A stretch of 64,000 nt of DNA from Trichlorobacter thiogenes (GTDB lineage Bacteria; Desulfobacterota; Desulfuromonadia; Geobacterales; Pseudopelobacteraceae): NCBI RefSeq assembly GCF_900167465.1, contig NZ_FUWR01000001.1, forward strand, positions 613,269 to 677,268, read 5' to 3'. Position numbers and translations under genes: made by a program. This document shows positions 44,553-55,087 of the stretch, piece after piece. The first letter of the stretch is position 1; each line of letters begins with the position of its first letter. Below the pieces are notes generated by a model that ran no database searches, was not told the origin of the DNA, and saw only the letters and a program-made list of their open reading frames with translations.

Positions 44553-45527
44553 TCAGGCCGCCTGTGCTGCGAGCGGCATGAATGGTTTGATTTCAAGCTT
44601 TAGAAAGCCAGACTTCGGTTTCGTGACTTGATCATAGATATCCGGATACGAGTTCTTCAGCTTCTTGCTGTCGACGATTACCGAGTCTGACACTGATGTG
44701 ACATTAACAAGGATACCGTCCGAAGCCCCTTTATACGCACCATTCACAAAAGTGAGGATGTCGTTTTTCAGAACTTCCAGACGAGTGTCGAGAGCTTTTT
44801 TCTGCTCGTTCAATTCCAGGTATGCTTTGCTGGCTTGATGGATTTCCGGAGGAAGTTCCATATCAACCACATGCGAAGGGCAATCCTGGCGAAACGTGCA
44901 ATAACCGCAGAGAATGCCTGGTTCCGTTCTAGGTGCACACTCGCCTCGCGTTGCCGATAGGATGTGCTGAGCTTTTTCCATAAGCTGATTAAACACCAGC
45001 CTGTTGGGTGCATAGTTATTGAATTCCCGGTATGTTCCAGCATTTAAGTCAACCACTAGAATTGATCCGCCGATTTGCACTTCCGGATCGAGGGTGAGTT
45101 GCAGCAGGCCCATCTGGACGTGCAGCTGATCCACCCAGGATGCGTAAGGTTCATCGGGGATGCCATCGGTCGACTTCATCTCCACGATGTGCAGCCTTTT
45201 GGTCTGCCGGTTCGCATAGAACAGAAAGTCAATGTGACACCTGATTTCAGGGATGTCCGGGTGACGTACTTCGACTTCTTCCTCGAAGAGGGCGCCGCCA
45301 GTCTTGAAGAACTCGGCATACATGGCTTGCGCAGCATGGCCACGGGAAAAGCGCAGGAGTGTCGAGATGTCGTGACTGGACGGGCATTGTTTGCCGAGAG
45401 CCGCTTTACGCGGGCAGCCAGCAATGTCGGAGGCTCCGACGTACACAGTTCGGTCACCAAGATGTGATGATTGTTTCTGCTGATGGGTCGGAATAGCACG
45501 TCCCAGAAATGCAGCGAGTTTGCTCAT
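44553..45527 (-). CDS. Cas4/RecB-like PD-(D/E)xK exonuclease
   Basis: 324 residues. The nuclease core shows an early Arg-Gly-His, Asp in Cys-His-Ile-Asp-Phe-Leu, Glu-Met-Lys-Ser as the E-x-K pair, and a Gln-x-x-x-Gly-Leu-Leu-Gln motif. Four cysteines (one near residue 18, then Cys-Gly-Tyr-Cys and Asp-Cys-Pro-Ser-His) may bind an Fe-S cluster as in Cas4 and AddB. Probably processes DNA ends together with the ssDNA-handling protein and SSB encoded upstream. ATG with GGAGACAG upstream. Confidence 0.78.
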   Translation of the reverse strand: MSKLAAFLGRAIPTHQQKQSSHLGDRTVYVGASDIAGCPRKAALGKQCPSSHDISTLLRFSRGHAAQAMYAEFFKTGGALFEEEVEVRHPDIPEIRCHIDFLFYANRQTKRLHIVEMKSTDGIPDEPYASWVDQLHVQMGLLQLTLDPEVQIGGSILVVDLNAGTYREFNNYAPNRLVFNQLMEKAQHILSATRGECAPRTEPGILCGYCTFRQDCPSHVVDMELPPEIHQASKAYLELNEQKKALDTRLEVLKNDILTFVNGAYKGASDGILVNVTSVSDSVIVDSKKLKNSYPDIYDQVTKPKSGFLKLEIKPFMPLAAQAA

Positions 45528-45539
45528 GGCTGTCTCCTT

Positions 45540-45704
45540 TCAAATCAGAAACGGCAGGGTCCCGACTGCGGTGAGCAGGGAACCGAAAATAACGCCGGCA
45601 ATGATTCTGGTGACATCGATGCTGATCTGTCGCTCCTTAACGGGCGTATAGACCGGTATCTGACAGCCTTTGATTGTTACGTGTTTGATGATGTGGGTAG
45701 TCAT
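45540..45704 (-). CDS. 54-residue membrane peptide
   Basis: ATG 45704 with AAGGAGACAAGATC upstream. A charged N terminus (Glu-Arg-Gln-Ile) precedes one C-terminal hydrophobic helix. Ends 12 bases before the nuclease gene. Unknown function. Confidence 0.5.
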   Translation of the reverse strand: MTTHIIKHVTIKGCQIPVYTPVKERQISIDVTRIIAGVIFGSLLTAVGTLPFLI

Positions 45705-45736
45705 GATCTTGTCTCCTTGTCTGTGGGTTGTACCCG

Positions 45737-45791
45737 GCAGAGGAGACAAGACACCCCCGGTAGGGAGAAAGTCGTTGTCTCCCTGCTGAGG
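45737..45791 (-). promoter_or_regulatory. nested hairpin leader upstream of the 54-residue gene
   Basis: GCAG plus GGAGACAA (45737-45749, one bulged A) pair with TTGTCTCC plus CTGC (45775-45786), 12 base pairs; inner CCC (45755-45757) with GGG (45763-45765). A downstream stretch AACCCACAGACAAGGAGACA-like sequence up to the start is shared with the next leader. Confidence 0.6.
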
Positions 45792-45828: not shown

Positions 45829-46785
45829 TTACCGGTACTGCCAGCATTTGCCTTTGCCGTCCCATTTGAAACCGTGGTCTTTCAGCCATTGGCGGGCTGA
45901 GGTGTCGTTGAAGTCCGGGAAGGCGGAGATCTCCGATTCATCTGCGGAGAGTTCCATCCTGATTCCCTTAGCCGTCAGATACCCGATGATCTTGGAAGTC
46001 GAAACTGGTTCGGCTCCGTGTGATGATGGGGTGTTGTCCGGTCTGGCAGACTGCGAATTACCGGAAGTAGTGCTGGTGTTGCCGGCACTGTTTCCTCCGT
46101 TGTGTTCCGTCTGTCCGTAAAGGTCAGGATCTTCCTCGATGTCCTGGGTGAAGATGTCCGAGGCAGCGGTTGAGGTGAGTACTGCATCCACCAAGCCGCG
46201 TTTCTTAGCCATTTTCAGACAGGTGTTGTAGAAATCGGCAGGATTGTCGTGTTCGACTTTTTCTCCCTGCCTGGCGATTTTCCAGTTGCCGCTGTCATCC
46301 TTTTTTGCGCTGAAGCCGCGTCCACCAATGATCTCCTGTGCCAATGCCGGGTTCTCCTTGCGAAGATCCCAGTACTCCCTCGGTACCGGCTTGTTGGTCA
46401 GTTCAACCGGTCCGACGCGGAAACGATACTTGCTTTCCATGGTCGAACAGGAACCGACACCCGTACCGAGACGCTGGCCTGCCGGTGAGTAGAGCGTCAC
46501 CTTGATGCGATACTCACGATGGCCGAGATGCAGGTCGATGGTTTCCACATCCACGTCGTTTGCCAGTCTGAAGGTGAGCATGAGCTTTTCGGCGCCCGGT
46601 TTGAGAAGAACTGCTTTGTCTCCGCAGCCGGGAATGGTGCCGTAGTGCTCGCCTGATTTCATGACGTCACGCATGACGTATTGAATCAGGTTTACCTGGG
46701 CCTTCAGTTCACTGATGTTGACAGCGTGGTGAGTGAGGGATGATGCTGCGGGGTTGATGGGAATGATTTGAGCTGGTGCGTTCAT
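45829..46785 (-). CDS. conserved mobile-element protein, probable ssDNA-handling function
   Basis: 318 residues. The N-terminal 200 residues carry a conserved Gly-Glu-His-Tyr-Gly-Thr-Ile-Pro-Gly and Leu-Leu-Lys-Pro-Gly-Ala-Glu-Lys-Leu block, familiar from phage and ICE proteins next to recombination genes. A Ser/Thr/Asn-rich linker (about 230-260) follows, and a C-terminal 50-residue helical domain with Asp-His-Gly-Phe-Lys-Trp-Asp. Placed between SSB and the Cas4-like nuclease, it may be an annealing protein or recombination mediator. That role is inferred. ATG with AAGGAGACAGAC upstream. Confidence 0.6.
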   Translation of the reverse strand: MNAPAQIIPINPAASSLTHHAVNISELKAQVNLIQYVMRDVMKSGEHYGTIPGCGDKAVLLKPGAEKLMLTFRLANDVDVETIDLHLGHREYRIKVTLYSPAGQRLGTGVGSCSTMESKYRFRVGPVELTNKPVPREYWDLRKENPALAQEIIGGRGFSAKKDDSGNWKIARQGEKVEHDNPADFYNTCLKMAKKRGLVDAVLTSTAASDIFTQDIEEDPDLYGQTEHNGGNSAGNTSTTSGNSQSARPDNTPSSHGAEPVSTSKIIGYLTAKGIRMELSADESEISAFPDFNDTSARQWLKDHGFKWDGKGKCWQYR

Positions 46786-46824
46786 CTGTCTGTCTCCTTT
46801 TCTGTGGGTTGTGTCCGACAGAGA

Positions 46825-46870
46825 AGACAGACCAATCCCTTTGGGGACTTGGTAATGTCTCCCCGTAGGA
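46825..46870 (-). promoter_or_regulatory. nested hairpin leader upstream of the ssDNA-handling gene
   Basis: AGACA (46825-46829) with TGTCT (46856-46860); inner ACCAATCCC (46831-46839) with GGGA and TTGGT (46844-46853), a 9-base-pair helix with one bulge; alternative CCCC (46861-46864) with GG (46867-46868). Confidence 0.55.
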
Positions 46871-46894
46871 CTGTTGAGTTGTGGTTACTGGTTG

Positions 46895-47394: not shown

Positions 47395-47832
47395 ATGTGG
47401 TGAAAGTATCCGCCGCTTACAAAGCTTGTCGCGGATTTTGAACAACAAAAAACCCACTCCGGCCATTGCCAGAATAGGTCACTGTTCTTCGTGATTATTG
47501 GTTATCAGAGGCACGCGCTACATTGATGGGCGCACCTTCAGATTGGATTCAAGTCGCATTACCCATACGACTGATCGAGGAAGGCATAAGCCGTTCCTGG
47601 TGTCATCCGGAAAGGGGCAACTGCGGCCTTGTCTTTCCAGGTAGTTCATCCCTGCCGGGGGCATTTCTTCTTCGGGCTATCCGAAAAAGTCTATCCGGGG
47701 CTCAAAGGCCGCACGGAGTCTCTTGAAAGAGTCTATAATACTGAAACGCTATCGATATTCCTCTTACAAGTCAAGAGGATTCACCCGGGACGACCCATTT
47801 GGCATCGTCCCGGTTCGACTGAAACAGAGTAA
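47395..47832. other. non-coding structured intergenic region
   Basis: No reading frame here looks like a protein. Two paired segments stand out: TGCGGCCTT (47622-47630) with AAGGCCGCA (47705-47713) enclosing 74 bases that contain several GC-rich sub-hairpins, and CCGGGACGA (47785-47793) with TCGTCCCGG (47805-47813). TATAAT at 47734-47739 could serve as a -10 but has no good -35. It must hold the promoter of the ssb operon; a structured RNA or the transfer origin are open options. Confidence 0.4.
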
Positions 47833-48255: not shown

Positions 48256-49740
48256 TTAGATTCTGCCGGTAGCCCTCATGGCGATTCCTTTGCCGAACCG
48301 GTCTGATAATTCCGAAAACACTGTGTCGTCGAATTTCTTCATATTCTGGACGATCATTTCCACCGCATTGATCTCAGAAGCTGCATTGGCGTAACTCTGC
48401 TGGGCAACGCTCAGAAGTTGCAGCGTCTTTTCCTCAAGCGTCTGGATATGCTGCATACCTTCGCCGAGGAGCGCCAACTGGCAGGTCTCCGGCGAAGCCC
48501 CGGCTTTATTACCCTTCTGGGTAGACATGATGTTGCGGGCCATCTCCTGCAACTGGACTGCACGCCCAAACAGGTCGAGCAGCATGTAGTAGCCGTAGGC
48601 CCGGGCGGTCAGTTCTGCCAGTTTGCCGATGACCTCACCCTCGGTATTGGTGGCAGTGGCATTCTTGAGGATCAGCCCGACCGACAGCGGCGTACTCTTG
48701 AGGAACGCCTCCTCGTCGACGGTAAGGGCGGTCTTCGATTTGATCTTAGTGGCGATGGACTGCATCTTGCCGGCCACATAGACCATCAGGTTCTTGTTGG
48801 CATCGGTAATATCGGCACAGGCCCCGGCGGTATCCCGTCCTTGCGCGGAACCGCTTATGAAGGAGTCAAAGCTGTTGTTCTTGTCGCACGGAGGAATGTA
48901 TTGGGCCTGGTAGGTGGTACCGGTCGTCGCCGGGTTCTGGATGATTACATCGCCGATGAAACCACGTACCAGTTTGACGTACTCGCTGCTCATCCCTTTC
49001 TTGCCGGCCAGGTTCTCCAGGACCGACCCATCCCCGAAGACCTGCAGGACTTCGGTCGGGCAACCGGCAGTGGCGCTGGTGGCTGAGGTCTGGGTTGTGC
49101 CCGGAACGCCAGGCTTGTTACCGGCATTGGTCTTCTGTTCGCTCTCGAACAGCTTGCTGACATCCTGGTAAAGATCCTTGGCGCCGCTCGACACCATGAA
49201 GTCGGTTTGAGCTGTTTTCATCTCAGCTTTCAGACTGTCCGACATGACTGACGAAAACGGACTGGCAGCGGTGGCCACCAGTGCCTTGGCCGCCTTGCAG
49301 TCGTTCAGTTGCAGCGAGTTCAGCCGGTCGGTGATGGCTTCGAGGGTCTTGATGGTATCGGCCACTTGGGGTGCCAGGGTCTTCAGGGCAATGTCGAAGG
49401 CTGCTGCCGGAGCTGCCGACAGGATGTTCTGGAGCTTCTGGACCAGATAATCCACGTTCAGGAACGAAAAACCGCCGAGGAACATATCGATCCCGCCGCA
49501 ACCGGATTTCAGCTTTGGCAGCGAGGCCGTGAACAGATGGTCATCGGTGTTTGCCCACCTGGCAGAGAAACTGCCGCCAGTGTAGTAGCCACGCTTTGAC
49601 CCTTCATAATAGCTGGGCGAAGTGGAGCTTTTCTGCTGTACCCAGTCATCGACCCAGCCAGACCAGGAAAGTACCGGGTTCATGGCAATGGTTGCCGCCA
49701 GGCAGGCAGCGGTGGTTCTGGTAAGTACGGTTCGTTTCAC
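48256..49740 (-). CDS. traH: TraH, F-type pilus assembly protein
   Basis: 494 residues, close to F TraH (458). A signal peptide (1-26, ending Ser-Trp-Ser) is followed by family features: a Tyr-Tyr-x-Gly-Gly-x-Phe-Ser-Ala-Arg segment, a Ser-Gly-Cys-Gly-Gly-Ile-Asp motif, a central cysteine-containing region, and a C-terminal helical part. Periplasmic protein required for pilus assembly; works with TraF and TraU. Located downstream of traF in the same orientation. Confidence 0.88.
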   Translation of the reverse strand: MKRTVLTRTTAACLAATIAMNPVLSWSGWVDDWVQQKSSTSPSYYEGSKRGYYTGGSFSARWANTDDHLFTASLPKLKSGCGGIDMFLGGFSFLNVDYLVQKLQNILSAAPAAAFDIALKTLAPQVADTIKTLEAITDRLNSLQLNDCKAAKALVATAASPFSSVMSDSLKAEMKTAQTDFMVSSGAKDLYQDVSKLFESEQKTNAGNKPGVPGTTQTSATSATAGCPTEVLQVFGDGSVLENLAGKKGMSSEYVKLVRGFIGDVIIQNPATTGTTYQAQYIPPCDKNNSFDSFISGSAQGRDTAGACADITDANKNLMVYVAGKMQSIATKIKSKTALTVDEEAFLKSTPLSVGLILKNATATNTEGEVIGKLAELTARAYGYYMLLDLFGRAVQLQEMARNIMSTQKGNKAGASPETCQLALLGEGMQHIQTLEEKTLQLLSVAQQSYANAASEINAVEMIVQNMKKFDDTVFSELSDRFGKGIAMRATGRI

Positions 49741-49780
49741 TCTGACACCTCTTCTCTCTGTTGCTGTAGGACCAGCAGAC

Positions 49781-50620
49781 TCATGGCCGCTCCTTTTCCT
49801 GAAGACGGCGTTTCTTCACGTCGAAGCTGCCTCCCTTCTGGAATTCGTAGAGTGAATACTCCTCAGGGGAGATATCCCCCTTGAGGAGGCGGACGGCCCG
49901 GTATGCCTTGTCCTCGATCTCATCGGCTGAGATGACTCCGGCTGACACCGGTAGATAATCCTGATTCCCTTTCTGGATCAGAATCAGGGTCGGCGTGATC
50001 TCAACGCTGAACTTGGCTGCCAGTCCCGGGTTCTCACTGATGTTGACCCTCTTTATGGTCCAGCCGGTCTCGTTGGTGAACCAGTCAAGGATACGGGATT
50101 GCTCATCGCAGTAGCTGCAGTCAGGTCTCTGGAAATAGATCAGGGCAAAGTCATCCCGGTTGTCCCGCAATATGCGCTGCCGTTCCTCGTTGATTTGGGA
50201 GATTCGGGCCAGGTTGCCAGGAGTGGTGATCGGATAGTCCTTCTTGGTGGTCAGCTCCGGATACTTCTGCCAGACGAACTGGGCCACGTTGGAAAAAGCC
50301 AGCGCCTTCTTGCGGGCGATTTCCTGGACCTCGAAATACTCCTTCACATTTTCTTCGCTCGGCTTCTGGACAGCCTTCTTCTTCAATGCCTCGGCGAACT
50401 CCTGGAACTGGTCAGGATGCATCTCCCAAACCTGCTCATAAGAATAATCCTTGAGCGATGGCGTGCTCTTGGGCGGTTTCTTCTTCTTTTCCTGCTTTTC
50501 GGCCTGCTTCTCAGGTTCTTTCTGATACCACCACCAGCCCTTGGCCGAGTCGGCATAGTAGCCGGCAGAAGCGGTGGTCACGGAGAGTTGGAGAATAGAA
50601 GCCAGTATCAGTCTCCTCAT
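49781..50620 (-). CDS. traF: TraF, F-type thioredoxin-like pilus assembly protein
   Basis: 279 residues. Signal peptide (1-19), a Gly-Trp-Trp-Trp-Tyr motif typical of TraF, a Lys-rich linker, then a thioredoxin-like domain with Cys-Ser-Tyr-Cys and Thr-Pro-Thr (cis-Pro loop). F TraF lacks the active CxxC, so a retained Cys-x-x-Cys suggests a disulphide-exchange activity for folding other transfer proteins. Overlaps the HD-protein gene by four bases (ATGA). Confidence 0.88.
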   Translation of the reverse strand: MRRLILASILQLSVTTASAGYYADSAKGWWWYQKEPEKQAEKQEKKKKPPKSTPSLKDYSYEQVWEMHPDQFQEFAEALKKKAVQKPSEENVKEYFEVQEIARKKALAFSNVAQFVWQKYPELTTKKDYPITTPGNLARISQINEERQRILRDNRDDFALIYFQRPDCSYCDEQSRILDWFTNETGWTIKRVNISENPGLAAKFSVEITPTLILIQKGNQDYLPVSAGVISADEIEDKAYRAVRLLKGDISPEEYSLYEFQKGGSFDVKKRRLQEKERP

Positions 50621-52083
50621 TCTTTGTCCTCCGCATGCTTTGGTCTGATGTCCTTGACGATTTTTCTCAAGACAGGGGGTTTGGTGCTTTCCAGTTCAGA
50701 GGTGAGCACACCAAAGGCATCGACCCTGAACGGGATCAGGAGTTTGTTGAATGACTTATCGTTATTCGACACGATGGATGTATTCGTTGTGTAGTACGCA
50801 CTGGTCATGAGTTCCGTGGCAATGGCATCTCTGGAGGCACTCAGTTCCCATACGACGGTATAGAGAAGATTACGTTTGGTTTCTTCATCAGCATCAGCCA
50901 CCAAGATCATGGGATCGCCATCGCTAACTTGATGGATCACCTGCCAAAGTGCTTCTGGCTTCACATAGACCAACCCATTCGGCAGTGAAACGGCCAGCCA
51001 CTTGACTCCGGACGAAGTTTTCTCCACCTGGTTGATCAATCCGTGGATGCCACCAAGGATCGCATCGGCATTGAACCATGCAGGAAGCTTTATCTTCTGG
51101 GAAACGTACTTTCCCGATTCTGGAGATCCGAGCGGGTGATCCCATTCCTGCGAATTTTTTTCTTTAGCGACAGGAACATCAGGTTGTGGAAGTGACTCAT
51201 CTATTGGCAGCGAACTTTCTTCGGAAGCCCTCACCTGCGCCATCTGCCCAAGAAAAGCCCCCATTTCATCATTACGAGACTCCTGGTCACACCGCTTCAA
51301 GCAGGCCGTGAGCGGGTTGTTCGGAGTTATCTGGTGATGATTGCGGATGATGCTGTCGAGCTCAGCCCTGTTCGACAGCGCAACGTATTCCGGAATGCTC
51401 GCGAGTATGAGGAGCGCTATTTGCGGATGATCTGCAGTCGAATAATACTGGCTGTGGAAAGAGGGAATTTTCCCGATGTCATGCGCCAATGACACGATGA
51501 GGACTGTAGGGAGCATGATTCTTTCAGAGTTCTTTTCTACGAACTTGCGGGCAACCCCGAGAGAATGCCGATAGAGTGGTACGGTAGCCAATTGGGCAAG
51601 AGCTGCTGCCCCGTACGCCGAATCCGGATCTGATATCTGCTTGCCGACAGCTGCGTATTTCTTGATCCCGACAACCGATGGGCAGGTACCTTCCGCGTCA
51701 AGGATCTTAAGCAGATAGACGATCACAACCTTGCGGTTCCCATTGATAAGCGGTTCCGGTTCCACAATGTCCCTGTAGAACTCTTCAATCTCCGAATGCC
51801 GGAATGTCGGCCTTGGAAATGCGGCTTCCTCCTCCTGTTTTGGTGTGGGTTCACGCCAGAGTCGAGACAGATCAGTGAAGTGAACAACACGGCCTGTCCA
51901 TACTGAAGATACCGTGGCGAGATCGGTGCATGGCAGGTCATCATCCGGTTCCAGCTCCGAAATTGACAGTGGAACCCACGGTTCTTGCTCTACTTCAGCC
52001 GGACGCCTGGTTAAAATTCGCCACAGGTTGTAAGTGACCATCAGGAAACCGATAACGCCACAGCAGTAGAGCAGGATTATCAT
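50617..52083 (-). CDS. membrane HD-domain transfer protein, candidate MobH-like relaxase
   Basis: 488 residues. One N-terminal membrane helix (about 2-22), then a helical region and an HD domain: Tyr-Arg-His-Ser-Leu-Gly-Val-Ala, Ala-His-Asp-Ile-Gly-Lys-Ile-Pro, Asp-His-Pro-Gln-Ile-Ala and a later Asn-His-His-Gln. A C-terminal domain (about 330-400) carries Leu-Pro-Asn-Gly-Leu-Val-Tyr and Glu-Ala-Leu-Trp. MobH relaxases (TraI of SXT) also have an HD core and pair with TraD. Here the gene overlaps the coupling-protein gene, supporting that idea, but the length and membrane anchor differ. A metal-dependent phosphohydrolase without relaxase activity is possible. Confidence 0.6.
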   Translation of the reverse strand: MIILLYCCGVIGFLMVTYNLWRILTRRPAEVEQEPWVPLSISELEPDDDLPCTDLATVSSVWTGRVVHFTDLSRLWREPTPKQEEEAAFPRPTFRHSEIEEFYRDIVEPEPLINGNRKVVIVYLLKILDAEGTCPSVVGIKKYAAVGKQISDPDSAYGAAALAQLATVPLYRHSLGVARKFVEKNSERIMLPTVLIVSLAHDIGKIPSFHSQYYSTADHPQIALLILASIPEYVALSNRAELDSIIRNHHQITPNNPLTACLKRCDQESRNDEMGAFLGQMAQVRASEESSLPIDESLPQPDVPVAKEKNSQEWDHPLGSPESGKYVSQKIKLPAWFNADAILGGIHGLINQVEKTSSGVKWLAVSLPNGLVYVKPEALWQVIHQVSDGDPMILVADADEETKRNLLYTVVWELSASRDAIATELMTSAYYTTNTSIVSNNDKSFNKLLIPFRVDAFGVLTSELESTKPPVLRKIVKDIRPKHAEDKE

Positions 52084-53453
52084 GCGGCCCCTCTGCTCAT
52101 GGTTATGGAAGATGGCGCCGACGGGAAGACTATCTTCAACTGCGGGTCTCTGGCATCACGAGTCACACCCTTGTACCTACCGGAATAGGTCAGCATGTAG
52201 AATTCCCTTGGTTGCAGCCCCAGAATATCCTGCACTTTCAAAATGTCCTGTTCCACCTCACGGGTAGTGACCTGGTTGGACCCGAAAATACCCGTAAGCA
52301 CATTGCGTACGCCAAAGTGCCGCACGACATACTCTGATGTTTCTGCATCTGAACAGCGCATAAAGATTTTGGTGTTGGTGTTGTCGAGGATCGATTTACC
52401 GTATTCCTCGCCAATAGCGGCATATATTTGATTCACAGACTGGGCGAAGGCATGCACCATCACGTCTGCTGACCCAGCCTTCGCGAAAAGGTCCTCAATG
52501 CCTTGGTAGAACAGGCTCTGGGCCTCATCTATGTAGATGGACAGCGGTGGGAATACTTTCTGCTTGTCAGAGAGATAGACTCTGCCGATGAAGGACTGGA
52601 TCATCGACAAGAGGACTTTGCCAAGTGTTGTGGCTGCCTCCCTGGTAATCATGGTACCGGTGTGCACGACCATGATTACCCCTTTCTTTCGTTCGAGTCG
52701 GCTGATGAAGCGGTTGCTGTCGGCCTGACCGATAATCTTGCCGATGTTGCCGGAGGAAAGCTCCATCAAGCAGGTGCGTAATGTTGAAGACACCTTTGAA
52801 TAATACTCTTGGGGAGATTCAAGGATGTCCTGGATCATGCCGGCGTTTAGCAGCGCCTCGGGTGTCTTGATTTCCTGCAGTAGCCCCATTGTGCTACTCA
52901 ATGATGAGCGGCGAATGCTTTGTCTGATAGCATCCATATTTTGCTTGGGAAGACGTTTTTCCCAATCGGCGATAATGATGTTGGCTGAGATGATGGCAGT
53001 AGTGATTTCCTTTGCAATGTTGCGGTAGAATGGCTCACGTCCACCTTGGATGCCTGAAACGATATGTCCGACGAGTTCGTCCGGCATGAAGTAATAGGCC
53101 ATAGGATCTATGACCGCTGAGTATTCCGGGAAAATCGGCGTTACCAGCATCAAATCCTTGAGTCTCTCCGCCTTACGGGCAACTTCGAAGATCTTGGTGA
53201 AGATCTGCTGGTCACCTTTGGGGTCGAAGTAGACCACGCTGTTGCCTTTCATGATGTCCTGCTCAATTAGGTTCTCGCAGAGTCGCGTTTTGCCGACCCC
53301 GGTAGTGCCAAATACAAACATGTGCCTTTTTCGGTATTCATCAGGTATCGAAATCGGAACGATCCGGGTTGGTCGTTCCATCTGGACTCCGGTGCCGATG
53401 GAGGTCATGAATTCCAGGTTGGTGGTGCTACGGCGCGATGAGGACTTGAACAT
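52080..53453 (-). CDS. traD: TraD-like type IV coupling protein without membrane anchor
   Basis: 457 residues. Walker A Gly-Thr-Thr-Gly-Val-Gly-Lys-Thr (49-56), Walker B Ile-Tyr-Ile-Asp-Glu-Ala-Gln, and a Gln-Ser-Val-Asn-Gln segment typical of VirD4/TraG/TraD ATPases. It pumps the relaxase-DNA complex to the channel. The usual N-terminal membrane domain is missing: the protein begins only 40 residues before the P-loop strand. The overlapping downstream gene encodes a membrane-anchored HD protein that could supply the anchor. Overlaps the NusA-like gene by 26 bases. Confidence 0.8.
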   Translation of the reverse strand: MFKSSSRRSTTNLEFMTSIGTGVQMERPTRIVPISIPDEYRKRHMFVFGTTGVGKTRLCENLIEQDIMKGNSVVYFDPKGDQQIFTKIFEVARKAERLKDLMLVTPIFPEYSAVIDPMAYYFMPDELVGHIVSGIQGGREPFYRNIAKEITTAIISANIIIADWEKRLPKQNMDAIRQSIRRSSLSSTMGLLQEIKTPEALLNAGMIQDILESPQEYYSKVSSTLRTCLMELSSGNIGKIIGQADSNRFISRLERKKGVIMVVHTGTMITREAATTLGKVLLSMIQSFIGRVYLSDKQKVFPPLSIYIDEAQSLFYQGIEDLFAKAGSADVMVHAFAQSVNQIYAAIGEEYGKSILDNTNTKIFMRCSDAETSEYVVRHFGVRNVLTGIFGSNQVTTREVEQDILKVQDILGLQPREFYMLTYSGRYKGVTRDARDPQLKIVFPSAPSSITMSRGAA

Positions 53454-54138
53454 GTTCCCTCAACTCCTTTCCGACTGTATTAATCGATTTTTTGGGTATC
53501 CGAACCGGCGTAACAACTTCACTGAACCCTCCTGCAATACGCCGTCGACATTTGATCCCGGCAATACCGGTCAGGTCTTGAAGCAGCAGAGCCGGCAAGG
53601 CACGGGATGTCCGGTTCAGAATGAGTCTAACCTTTGCAATGTCGCCTCCCACCATGACGGGGCGCACACTCGTCACCAGAAAGCTGCGCTGCTCACCTAT
53701 GCGATAACGTGAACGTTCATGTGGCGGCTGATAGCGTAAAGGGCATTCCCCGAACAGGATCAGTGGCTTAAGGATGTCATCAATTTCCAGTGTAACGTGT
53801 AATGTCCCTCGGGAGCCGATACGCCCCACGGCCCCACAAAAAACCCTCCCCTGAAGTTCCTGCAGTCTTTTTGCTTCCAGCTGGTTCTGACGTTTTTGCA
53901 GTTCCACTTCGACACTGTGAATGATATGCCGGCGAAGCTTCTTGGGAATGTCCTTCAACTGCATTTCGACCGGGTGTCCCAGCTTGGGATAGGCAATAAT
54001 TTCCAGCTCCCCCTCTGCCCGGACAGTAACCGTCCTCTGAAAAGCTGCCATCAGTGTCTTCGCCACAGCGCATTCAACAGCATCGACTATCTCGTCCTCC
54101 GGCAATCCGTATTTGTGGAGTAGATCAGCGGAGAGCAT
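53428..54138 (-). CDS. NusA-like protein encoded in the transfer operon
   Basis: 236 residues from ATG 54138 (GAGGTG upstream); a longer frame to 54315 is a shadow of the transglycosylase gene. Aligned by eye with NusA: [11 protein letters not shown] (N-terminal domain), an S1-like Gly-x-Val segment, Arg-Tyr-Arg-Ile-Gly-Glu-Gln-Arg and Ser-Val-Arg-Pro, Leu-Asn-Arg-Thr-Ser, then Ile-Lys-Cys-Arg-Arg-Arg entering KH1. The protein stops inside KH1; KH2 and the acidic repeats are absent. NusA binds RNA polymerase and RNA to control pausing and termination. An element-specific elongation factor is inferred. Confidence 0.6.
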
Positions 54139-54631
54139 TGCCGAACACCTCATCCCATGGTGATTCGATCCTGGGCGTGCTGATGGCTGCGATGAGCGTC
54201 GCCGCCTGTGGCTTCGTATGCTCAGCGAGGATGCGATACACTTTTCCGGCGTAACGGTCCCCTTTCGACGGGGTGCGCGAGTTGTAACAACCGACAGCCC
54301 GCCAGGTGTAGCCATAATCCTGGATACATTGGGCCAGTACCCAGGCCCCCACTTTCACATTCGTGCATGGTTCTCCCAGTTCATTCCATGTTTTGCCAAG
54401 CCTTTTTGCCCAACTGGAATTGATCTGCATCAGTCCATAGTCGTAGCTTCCGTTACTGTTGCGATTGATTGCACGGGGGTTGAAGTTGCTCTCCGTCTTG
54501 GCGATGCTCCAGAGCAGTTGTGGCGATATGCCGTATTGACTCCCGGCCTCCTCGAAGCAGAAAGATTTGGCCTGGATTGGCACGCAGACAAGGCTGATCA
54601 CGAGCAGGCAGATGCCTGGTAATCGACACAT
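54125..54631 (-). CDS. lytic transglycosylase (SLT family)
   Basis: 168 residues from ATG 54631 (AGGAGGAACGA upstream). Signal peptide (1-21), then the SLT domain with catalytic Glu47 in Lys-Thr-Glu-Ser, Tyr-Gly-Leu-Met-Gln-Ile-Asn, and a late Ala-Val-Gly-Cys-Tyr-Asn. Opens peptidoglycan locally for the transfer apparatus, like VirB1 or F orf169. Four cysteines may form disulphides. First gene of the second transfer block; overlaps the NusA-like gene by 14 bases. Confidence 0.9.
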
Positions 54632-55087
54632 TCGTTCCTCCTGACTGATAATCTTGTAGGGGGGAAGGTGGCACCGTCTTGACAAGAAGATTTGATCTGT
54701 TCCGTAACCAATAAAAATTCCGGATGGTTTTTTTATGCTTCTGGCTGGCTGGATTTGTTTTAGAGAAATGTTGGATGGTTCCGAATTTTACGGAGTTGAT
54801 ATTAGAGGAATATGTATAGAAAAACTTTTTTTGAGTTCACGGAGTATGTGATATTTTTGCCTGGATATGAATTCTAAGTTTGTGAGTCGTTAATGCTCTG
54901 TACGGTATATTTTCCTCCTACGATTCTTGCACGATCCCTATTATCTAAAGCAGGAAGTTTTCCTTTTCCAGGGAAATAATTTTAAATTTCTGCTTTCATT
55001 TAAGGATGACCCGCTGCTTAAATTGAAATGGATCACCTCGTCGCAATTAAATATTCACTTCGTATTACTAATTCACAATAAAAATAG
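54632..55087. other. AT-rich non-coding region at the edge of the transfer block
   Basis: No convincing gene in 456 bases. GGATGGTT occurs twice (near 54723 and 54772). The stretch separates the transfer genes from chromosome-like genes, so an attachment site or element end may lie here, but no tRNA or matching att repeat is visible inside the window. Confidence 0.4.

What the first reader, a model, noticed from the sequence alone, without database searches (positions are those of the whole stretch)
53428..54138. Element-encoded truncated NusA-like protein
Seen: NusA N-terminal, S1 and start of KH1 features in a 236-residue protein inside the transfer operon. A conjugative element carrying its own partial transcription elongation factor is unusual. 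Inference: it could act as an antiterminator or pause factor on the element's own long operons, perhaps together with the repeated hairpin leaders at 38.9-47.4 kb.
Basis: partly seen in the sequence, partly recalled or inferred. Interest (0 to 1): 0.7.

Follow-up and report, generated by a model that had tools for sequence, protein, structure and literature searches.

The report
Trimmed NusA carried by conjugative elements
A family of DNA elements that spread between bacteria carries its own cut-down relative of NusA, a protein that normally steers RNA polymerase, next to the gene for the DNA-export motor, and probably uses it to control its own genes or the export of its DNA.

Summary
The gene is on the minus strand (ATG 54138, stop 53428, 236 aa). 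It is a real NusA relative: profile comparison is colinear over NTD-S1-KH1 (E 8e-8) and Foldseek against the PDB gives NusA at ranks 1-13. It is not broken: a family of such proteins is under purifying selection (dN/dS 0.07-0.10). Members lack KH2, and KH1 lacks its GXXG helix-turn. The gene lies directly upstream of a coupling-protein gene and an HD-domain gene in 22 of 25 loci; two of the rest end at a contig end, one is decayed. No Pfam or NCBIfam model names it; I found no paper on an element-borne NusA paralogue. Most likely it is an RNA-polymerase-binding NusA derivative serving the element's transcripts (0.42); the main rival is a nucleic-acid-binding accessory of the coupling complex (0.35). 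Neither was tested directly.

The parts
53428..54138 (-). NusA-like protein, 236 aa (P0001)
   Evidence: dN/dS 0.066-0.099 in 7 comparisons
53854..54138 (-). NusA-NTD-like part, residues 1-95: helix, helix, strands, long linker helix; too short to hold the globular head of NusA-NTD
   Evidence: VIA-align Z 8.5, 94 residues, 3.1 A on 6j9e_F, unrelated proteins up to Z 6.0 here; ungapped register with E. coli NusA residues 13-48; hhalign of this part alone E 0.009
53605..53853 (-). S1 domain, residues 96-178
   Evidence: hhalign of residues 90-180 against NusA E 1.7e-6; own NusA scores best of six S1-bearing proteins of the genome; low model confidence here
53428..53604 (-). KH1-like domain, residues 179-236, GXXG helix-turn missing; no KH2 follows
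   Evidence: 58 residues at 1.6 A, Z 7.0 on 2asb_A, unrelated proteins up to Z 6.6 here; 12-residue gap in relaxed hhalign; alone by sequence not significant (E 0.2)
54125..54685 (-). lytic transglycosylase (SLT), first gene of the operon in this window; likely ATG at 54631
   Evidence: Pfam SLT 5.3e-24; immediately upstream in 19 of 25 loci; ATG read
52080..53453 (-). VirD4/TraD-type coupling protein (T4CP) without N-terminal membrane segment
   Evidence: Pfam TrwB_AAD_bind, TraG-D_C; Walker A at residue 49 with no hydrophobic stretch before it, the same in 22 of 22 homologues
50617..52083 (-). HD-domain protein with N-terminal hydrophobic segment; follows the T4CP in the 22 of 25 loci that hold one
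   Evidence: Pfam HD 1.6e-4
48256..50620 (-). TraF (49781-50620) and TraH (48256-49740) of an F-type transfer system
   Evidence: Pfam TraF 1.4e-70, TraH 5.7e-102
46779..46871 (-). leader switch before the 318-aa gene at 45829-46785 (co-occurring feature; no functional link shown)
   Evidence: R1 80.2 bits, a training sequence of the model
45697..45791 (-). second leader switch, before a 54-aa ORF and the PD-(D/E)XK gene 44553-45527
   Evidence: R1 73.8 bits, a training sequence of the model

Best explanation
A NusA paralogue captured and trimmed by an F-type conjugative element. Shown: shared ancestry and domain order with NusA (NTD-S1-KH1), purifying selection, a conserved place in the transfer operon beside the coupling-protein gene, and co-occurrence with the leader regulon. 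Inferred: the NTD still docks on RNA polymerase near the beta-flap tip; S1 and the basic KH1-like domain (net charge +12 together) hold nascent RNA near the exit channel; with KH2, the GXXG loop and acidic repeats gone it cannot do all that NusA does, and so replaces or antagonises host NusA on element transcripts, changing pausing or termination. It would be a specialised elongation factor working like ActX/RfaH or LoaP, but built from NusA rather than NusG. My shares: NusA ancestry 0.95; still binds RNA polymerase 0.5; main role in transcription 0.42; acts through the leaders 0.15.
For: Colinear NusA match, E 8.4e-8, the A1 version far above 40 shuffles. NusA fills Foldseek ranks 1-13. The NTD, which with AR2 is the RNA-polymerase-binding part of E. 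coli NusA (PMC4642336, passages), is kept while KH2 is dropped. E. coli Leu27, Leu31, Ile43 and Val45, reported to be affected by RNA polymerase binding (same paper), fall on P0001 residues 21, 25, 37 and 39, which are V/I/L/F in 20, 18, 17 and 18 of 20 members; E. coli Glu28 falls on a Glu invariant in 20 of 20. The genome has one NusA_N match and one NusG match, both on other contigs, so this is an extra gene. Co-occurrence with a multi-gene leader regulon in two samples (22, 103; 111). Precedent: R6K carries the RfaH homologue ActX beside sltX1 at the head of its transfer operon (PMC13250579, passages); LoaP acts by antagonising NusA (PMC12691694, abstract).
Against: No direct evidence of RNA polymerase binding. 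The basic run K36-K37-K38 (K/R in 27, 31 and 28 of 31 NusA) is K/R in only 0, 7 and 0 of 20 members; E. coli position 46, Glu in 29 of 31 NusA, is Arg in 10 of 20; the NTD of P0001 has net charge -1. The hydrophobic positions may simply be core, and position 43 is R or K in 17 of 31 NusA. By sequence alone most signal comes from S1; NTD alone E 0.009, KH alone 0.2. Terminator-like sites in 38.0-55.2 kb are at chance level (18 found, 17.0 expected). The tightest link is to the coupling-protein gene, not to the leaders.
Confidence: 0.42

Rival explanations
1. The NusA fold was repurposed as a nucleic-acid-binding accessory of the coupling complex: it binds the soluble coupling protein and/or the HD protein and presents the transfer DNA (or RNA), without any part in transcription.
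For: NusA-like, T4CP and HD genes are consecutive in 22 of 25 loci, the other three being two contig ends and one decayed copy; this holds also in the five loci with 23-29% identity or so (L064-L068), where SLT, TraF and TraH are not detected. All 11 near-full-length T4CPs of this family found in 57 relatives have the NusA-like gene immediately upstream; two further genomes (G036, G042) hold only T4CP fragments and no NusA-like match. These T4CPs lack the usual N-terminal membrane segment in 22 of 22 homologues, so a partner could be needed. S1 and KH1-like parts are basic. The NusA-type basic run of the NTD and the GXXG loop are lost.
Against: Conserved gene order can reflect operon structure alone. 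No fusion with the T4CP appeared in the loci examined (not searched for further). It does not explain why the polymerase-binding type of NTD is kept.
Confidence: 0.35
2. It is an RNA-binding regulator that acts directly on the bistable leaders (holding box A or C so that the Shine-Dalgarno box is free or hidden), independent of RNA polymerase.
For: Leaders and gene co-occur. The leaders share a 5' core while their SD-covering helices differ from gene to gene, which suggests one trans-acting reader.
Against: Both sit on one element. G394 has the gene and no detected leader; G053 has leaders and no detected gene. The GXXG loop, the usual RNA-gripping part of KH (recalled), is missing.
Confidence: 0.13
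3. It is a generic S1-plus-KH protein whose resemblance to NusA is convergent, or a decaying relic.
For: No curated NusA model hits it; most sequence signal lies in S1; model confidence and TM-scores are low.
Against: Own NusA beats five other S1 proteins of the same genome; NTD and KH1 parts match NusA in structure; dN/dS 0.066-0.099.
Confidence: 0.04

Closest known systems
NusA (bacterial transcription elongation factor)
   Same: Domain order NTD-S1-KH1, colinear profile match and best structural matches; NTD without globular head, as PMC4642336 (passages) states for M. tuberculosis and P. limnophilus NusA.
   Different: No KH2, no acidic repeats; KH1 without GXXG; basic run of the NTD lost; 236 aa against about 382 in the host NusA and 495 in E. 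coli; carried by a conjugative element beside a separate host NusA.
ActX and other NusG/RfaH paralogues of conjugative plasmids
   Same: Extra, element-borne relative of a universal elongation factor, coded in the transfer operon beside a transglycosylase gene (PMC13250579, passages).
   Different: Built on NusA, not NusG. I did not search for an ops-like recruitment site. Function untested.
LoaP (antiterminator that antagonises NusA)
   Same: Precedent for an operon-specific elongation factor that works with a small leader hairpin and through NusA (PMC12691694, abstract).
   Different: LoaP is a NusG paralogue acting at an intrinsic terminator; the leaders here can hide a Shine-Dalgarno box.
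F-type conjugative transfer systems (plasmids pSD and pPRO1 carry the gene)
   Same: TraF and TraH, relatives of TraU and TrbC (both under the NCBIfam cut-off) and a coupling protein are present; PLSDB types pSD and pPRO1 as MPF_F.
   Different: Coupling protein without membrane segment, HD partner, NusA-like gene; PLSDB lists no relaxase type for pSD or pPRO1 and calls both 'non-mobilizable'.

Membership tests
NusA | Colinear NTD-S1-KH1 with significant similarity to NusA | tested here: met
NusA | KH2 domain | tested here: not met
   Protein ends after the KH1-like domain; the open frames of the other members end at nearly the same place
NusA | KH1 with GXXG loop | tested here: not met
   Helix-turn missing in relaxed alignment; no GXXG in that stretch in the 20 rows of A3
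NusA | Reaches the curated NusA models (Pfam, NCBIfam) | tested here: not met
   Window protein; none of 20 members hits a NusA Pfam model at E <= 1; NCBIfam was run on the window protein only
NusA | NTD binding to the RNA polymerase beta-flap tip | not testable with these tools
   Only position-by-position comparison, with a mixed outcome
NusA | Housekeeping copy of the genome | tested here: not met
   The NusA_N match of the genome is on another contig (C39); this is an additional, element-borne gene
Specialised elongation-factor paralogue of a conjugative element (ActX-like role) | Element-borne relative of an elongation factor in the transfer operon | tested here: met
Specialised elongation-factor paralogue of a conjugative element (ActX-like role) | Measured effect on element transcription | not testable with these tools
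   Needs an experiment
NusG/RfaH/ActX family | NusG (NGN) domain | tested here: not met
   The protein has no Pfam match, and the only NusG-family match of the genome is on contig C7

The most novel reading that the evidence does not exclude
A mobile-element regulon with its own NusA: the trimmed NusA rides on RNA polymerase and sets, during transcription, which of two exclusive folds each of the element's several leader switches adopts (A:B plus C:D, SD hidden; or B:E inside A:C, SD free), so that a whole cassette (SSB, nuclease, MoxR-type ATPase, RadC and others) is switched together with transfer.
Probability: 0.13. Interest if true: 0.9.

Novelty: new variant of a known kind. Interest (0 to 1): 0.6.

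Why it matters
Element-borne paralogues of NusG are known regulators of acquired operons; an element-borne paralogue of NusA would be a second route. It is also a natural minimal NusA (NTD, S1, KH1 without its GXXG loop), which could show which NusA parts are needed for which function. If instead it works with the coupling protein, a transcription-factor fold has been turned into a DNA-export part. Either answer can be tested with one gene deletion and one pull-down.

Tried and rejected
Single-sequence searches (Pfam, NCBIfam, PDB phmmer) and PHROGs on the 17 members of A1 do not name the family; I did not read this as evidence against NusA, because the profile comparisons do name it. No sign that it is viral in the collections searched: no match in 50,697 phage records, none confirmed in four viral-contig scans, which rely on short peptide patterns. 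A first regex scan seemed to show that leaders are absent from pSD and pPRO1; this was wrong, because the leader cassette lay outside the stretches I then held. Fetching most of both plasmids (the first 1,745 bases of pSD and 2,710 bases of pPRO1 were not fetched) reversed it. A strict exact-match scan for the A-C-D design was too insensitive: it finds 8 places in the 17 element sources given, missing most leaders seen otherwise, and 1 in 98.5 kb of control loci. The longer start at 54315 (295 aa) is rejected: several relatives have a stop shortly before the position of the ATG at 54138. A MOBH relaxase (TraI_2, PF07514) elsewhere in the genome: only one sub-threshold match over 24 positions. 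The second structure job (S1 and KH1 alone, mean pLDDT 42) was too poor and was not used. The RNAalifold consensus for the leaders found 4 pairs only, as the sequence alignment does not line up the boxes; the pairing claim rests. Leader cut-off: I searched 57 relatives at E <= 0.1 and counted at E <= 1e-3, chosen after seeing the table; at 0.1 five more genomes without the gene have one or two weak matches (17 of 57 in all). Unlisted folds in the VIA-align table mean nothing either way.

Full report
What is there. The interval 53428-54138 codes, on the minus strand, for a 236-residue protein. Its start overlaps the end of a lytic transglycosylase ORF by 14 bases and its stop lies 26 bases inside a coupling-protein ORF. 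The operon continues with an HD-domain gene, TraF and TraH; relatives of TraU and TrbC of an F-type system lie at the start of the window on the plus strand (both under the model cut-off). The genome has one NusA_N match and one NusG match, on other contigs, so this gene is an addition.

Is it NusA? Single-sequence searches say nothing. I collected relatives: 12 of 57 related genomes including the window's own (14 places), 5 loci in the genome collection, 2 plasmids, 8 of 395 genomes spread over the phylum (10 places). The 20-row alignment A3 goes down to 23% identity to the window protein. Profile comparison with 31 NusA sequences including E. coli gave E 8.4e-8, probability 94.4, score 61.7, colinear from the first helix to the KH1 strands. 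With the smaller alignment A1 the score was 46.8; the best of 40 column shuffles scored 23.9 and the reversed alignment 16.1. By domain, S1 carries most of the sequence signal (E 1.7e-6); the NTD alone gives E 0.009 and the KH part alone 0.2. Among six S1-bearing proteins of the same genome (four of them cut by the locus ends), NusA scores best, 30.2 against 22.9 for the next. The AlphaFold2 model is weak (mean pLDDT 59, most of S1 under 50), yet Foldseek against the PDB gives entries with NusA at ranks 1-13, E 5.4e-8 to 8.1e-3, the next being unrelated at 0.026; TM-scores are low (0.24-0.36 by query). VIA-align puts the NTD on 6j9e_F, an elongation complex with NusA (Z 8.5, 94 residues, 3.1 A), and the C-terminus on NusA KH1 (Z 7.0, 58 residues, 1.6 A); unrelated proteins reach Z 6.6 for the KH part and 6.0 for the NTD. 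hmmsearch of A3 against PDB sequences lists 10, of which 9 are NusA, all weak (best 0.02), with the NTD in ungapped register. None of these alone is decisive; together I take common descent with NusA as shown.

What was lost and kept. The protein ends after a KH1-like domain. Against NusA, 12 residues are missing where KH1 has its GXXG helix-turn (relaxed alignment); none of the 20 rows has GXXG there. KH2 and acidic repeats are absent, and the NTD is too short for the globular head, which PMC4642336 (passages) says is missing also from two true NusA. E. coli residues reported to feel RNA polymerase (Leu27, Leu31, Ile43, Val45; same paper, passages and section 7) fall on V21, V25, V37 and V39, which are V/I/L/F in 20, 18, 17 and 18 of 20 members, and E28 falls on a Glu invariant in 20 of 20. 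Against this, the basic run 36-38 that NusA conserves (27, 31, 28 of 31) is K/R in 0, 7 and 0 of 20, and the NTD of P0001 has net charge -1, while its S1 and KH1-like parts are each +6. Binding to RNA polymerase is thus possible, not shown.

It is a working gene. dN/dS against seven relatives is 0.066-0.099, and 0.071-0.099 for codons 6-226, outside the overlaps. One shortened copy was seen, in G046, where the coupling-protein gene is missing too.

Neighbourhood. I examined all 25 distinct places found besides the window (three places found twice were counted once). The next gene downstream is the coupling protein and then the HD gene in 22; two loci (L070, L071) stop at the contig end and one (L069, G046) is decayed. 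The transglycosylase is upstream in 19 of 25. From the other side, all 11 near-full-length coupling proteins of this family in 57 relatives have the NusA-like gene immediately upstream; G036 and G042 hold only coupling-protein fragments and no NusA-like match. In 22 of 22 homologues the coupling protein has no hydrophobic segment before its Walker A motif, while the HD protein of the window begins with one. This triad is why I keep the coupling-complex rival almost level with the transcription reading.

The leaders. They are real and shared: 23 distinct examples from the window, L073, pSD, pPRO1 and G406 show boxes A (GGGGAGACA), B (CTCCCC), E (GGGG), C (TGTCTCCCC) and D (AAGGAGACAG, the Shine-Dalgarno box before the start codon), or variants of them. 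C can pair with A or with D. Pairing of D with its own upstream part is stronger than with that of other leaders: mean -14.92 against -12.13 kcal/mol, and none of 20,000 permutations reached the observed mean; the own partner ranks 1-3 of 23 in 15 leaders, but 18 or worse in three. Box letters and the two-state reading are mine; the alternative fold B:E inside A:C was read by eye and not tested. T-runs of 5-6 follow box C in the G406 and G331 leaders. With a covariance model that is almost pure sequence (4 pairs), leaders at E <= 1e-3 occur in 12 of 57 relatives, the NusA-like gene also in 12, both in 11 (Fisher p 7.6e-10). In the phylum sample both occur in 6, the gene alone in 2 (G331, G394), leaders alone in 1 (G084, one marginal hit), neither in 386 of 395 (p 3.8e-11); I take the two draws as the same 395 genomes, as the handles shown agree. 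G000, G016, G027 and G406 gave sequences to the model. In G331 a leader of the same design with other letters stands before the PD-(D/E)XK gene. The p-values ignore kinship and linkage: gene and leaders ride on one element, so they show association, not interaction.

How it probably works. Three readings fit: an RNA-polymerase-bound NusA variant for element transcripts; a nucleic-acid-binding accessory of the coupling complex; a direct regulator of the leaders. Ancestry and the kept NTD favour the first, the gene triad the second, and the co-occurrence supports the first and third alike. I commit to the first at 0.42, against 0.35 and 0.13. The nearest functional precedents are ActX, an RfaH homologue next to sltX1 at the head of the R6K transfer operon (PMC13250579, passages), and LoaP, which acts by antagonising NusA (PMC12691694, abstract).

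Novelty. Four searches of the open full-text library gave nothing on a NusA of a conjugative element: 'NusA-like' with 'conjugative' 0 papers; 'NusA paralog' 0; at least two of NusA/conjugative/truncated NusA 88 papers, of which I saw the 15 listed (titles and abstract starts), none about it; NusA-like protein/NusA homolog/NusA paralogue 1 paper, on archaeal virus infection. Most subscription papers are not in that library. Because KH2 and GXXG are missing I do not file it as a NusA; it is a NusA-derived family, a new variant of a known kind.

Limits. No other phylum was sampled (one search gave an error); one relative is in a 5-kb contig binned as Chlorobiaceae, which may be misbinned. The window copy of the operon differs from its sisters upstream: see the list of things noticed.

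Noticed in passing
window 46779-46871 and 45697-45791 (minus); L094, L095 (pSD), L101, L102 (pPRO1), L068, L064 about 2418-2500: A regulon of leaders that look like bistable translational switches able to cover the Shine-Dalgarno box, several per element; in pPRO1 before genes annotated as SSB, PD-(D/E)XK nuclease, MoxR ATPase, RadC and hypothetical proteins. 23 distinct ones compared; no Rfam match at E <= 1 in window 36-57 kb. Deserves its own study.
   Followed up: partly
window 47447-47740 (minus): About 290 nt between the 133-aa ORF after TraH and ssb, strongly conserved in seven sister loci and in the more distant L073, folding better than all 200 shuffles (z -3.6 for 47440-47720) and ending in a hairpin with a T-run. 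Could be a structured RNA with terminator or an oriT; no Rfam match.
   Followed up: partly
window about 54690-54710: Upstream of the transglycosylase gene seven sister loci share a conserved stretch with a palindrome-like TATAGTG...CACTATA site (coding content not examined; varied further up); in the window the similarity stops there and unrelated sequence follows. The only match of that stretch in the genome is 70% over 257 bases on another contig. This may be the element's edge, or the operon's usual promoter region is missing here.
   Followed up: partly
window 52080-53453 and 50617-52083 (minus): Coupling proteins without a membrane segment (22 of 22 homologues) followed by an HD-domain protein that in the window starts with a hydrophobic segment. 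PLSDB lists no relaxase type for pSD or pPRO1, so the HD protein might be a very divergent MOBH-type relaxase (recalled idea; no TraI_2 match for it at E <= 1).
   Followed up: partly
G046 (L069) and G053: G046 keeps a shortened NusA-like gene without coupling protein and without detected leaders; G053 of the same genus has leaders but no detected NusA-like gene or coupling protein. Decayed or incompletely assembled elements.
   Followed up: no
P0001 C132 and C197 (alignment A3): Cys132 is present in 20 of 20 and Cys197 in 19 of 20 members, in the stretches GxCPLRxQPxHER and CxRRIxG; E. coli NusA has other residues at the aligned places. Possible metal or redox site.
   Followed up: no
window 8266-30457 (plus): Between the plus-strand transfer genes and the minus-strand operon: type I restriction-modification genes (HsdM, specificity subunit, HsdR-like), AAA, HAD- and PRTase-like genes and a tyrosine recombinase.
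   Followed up: no
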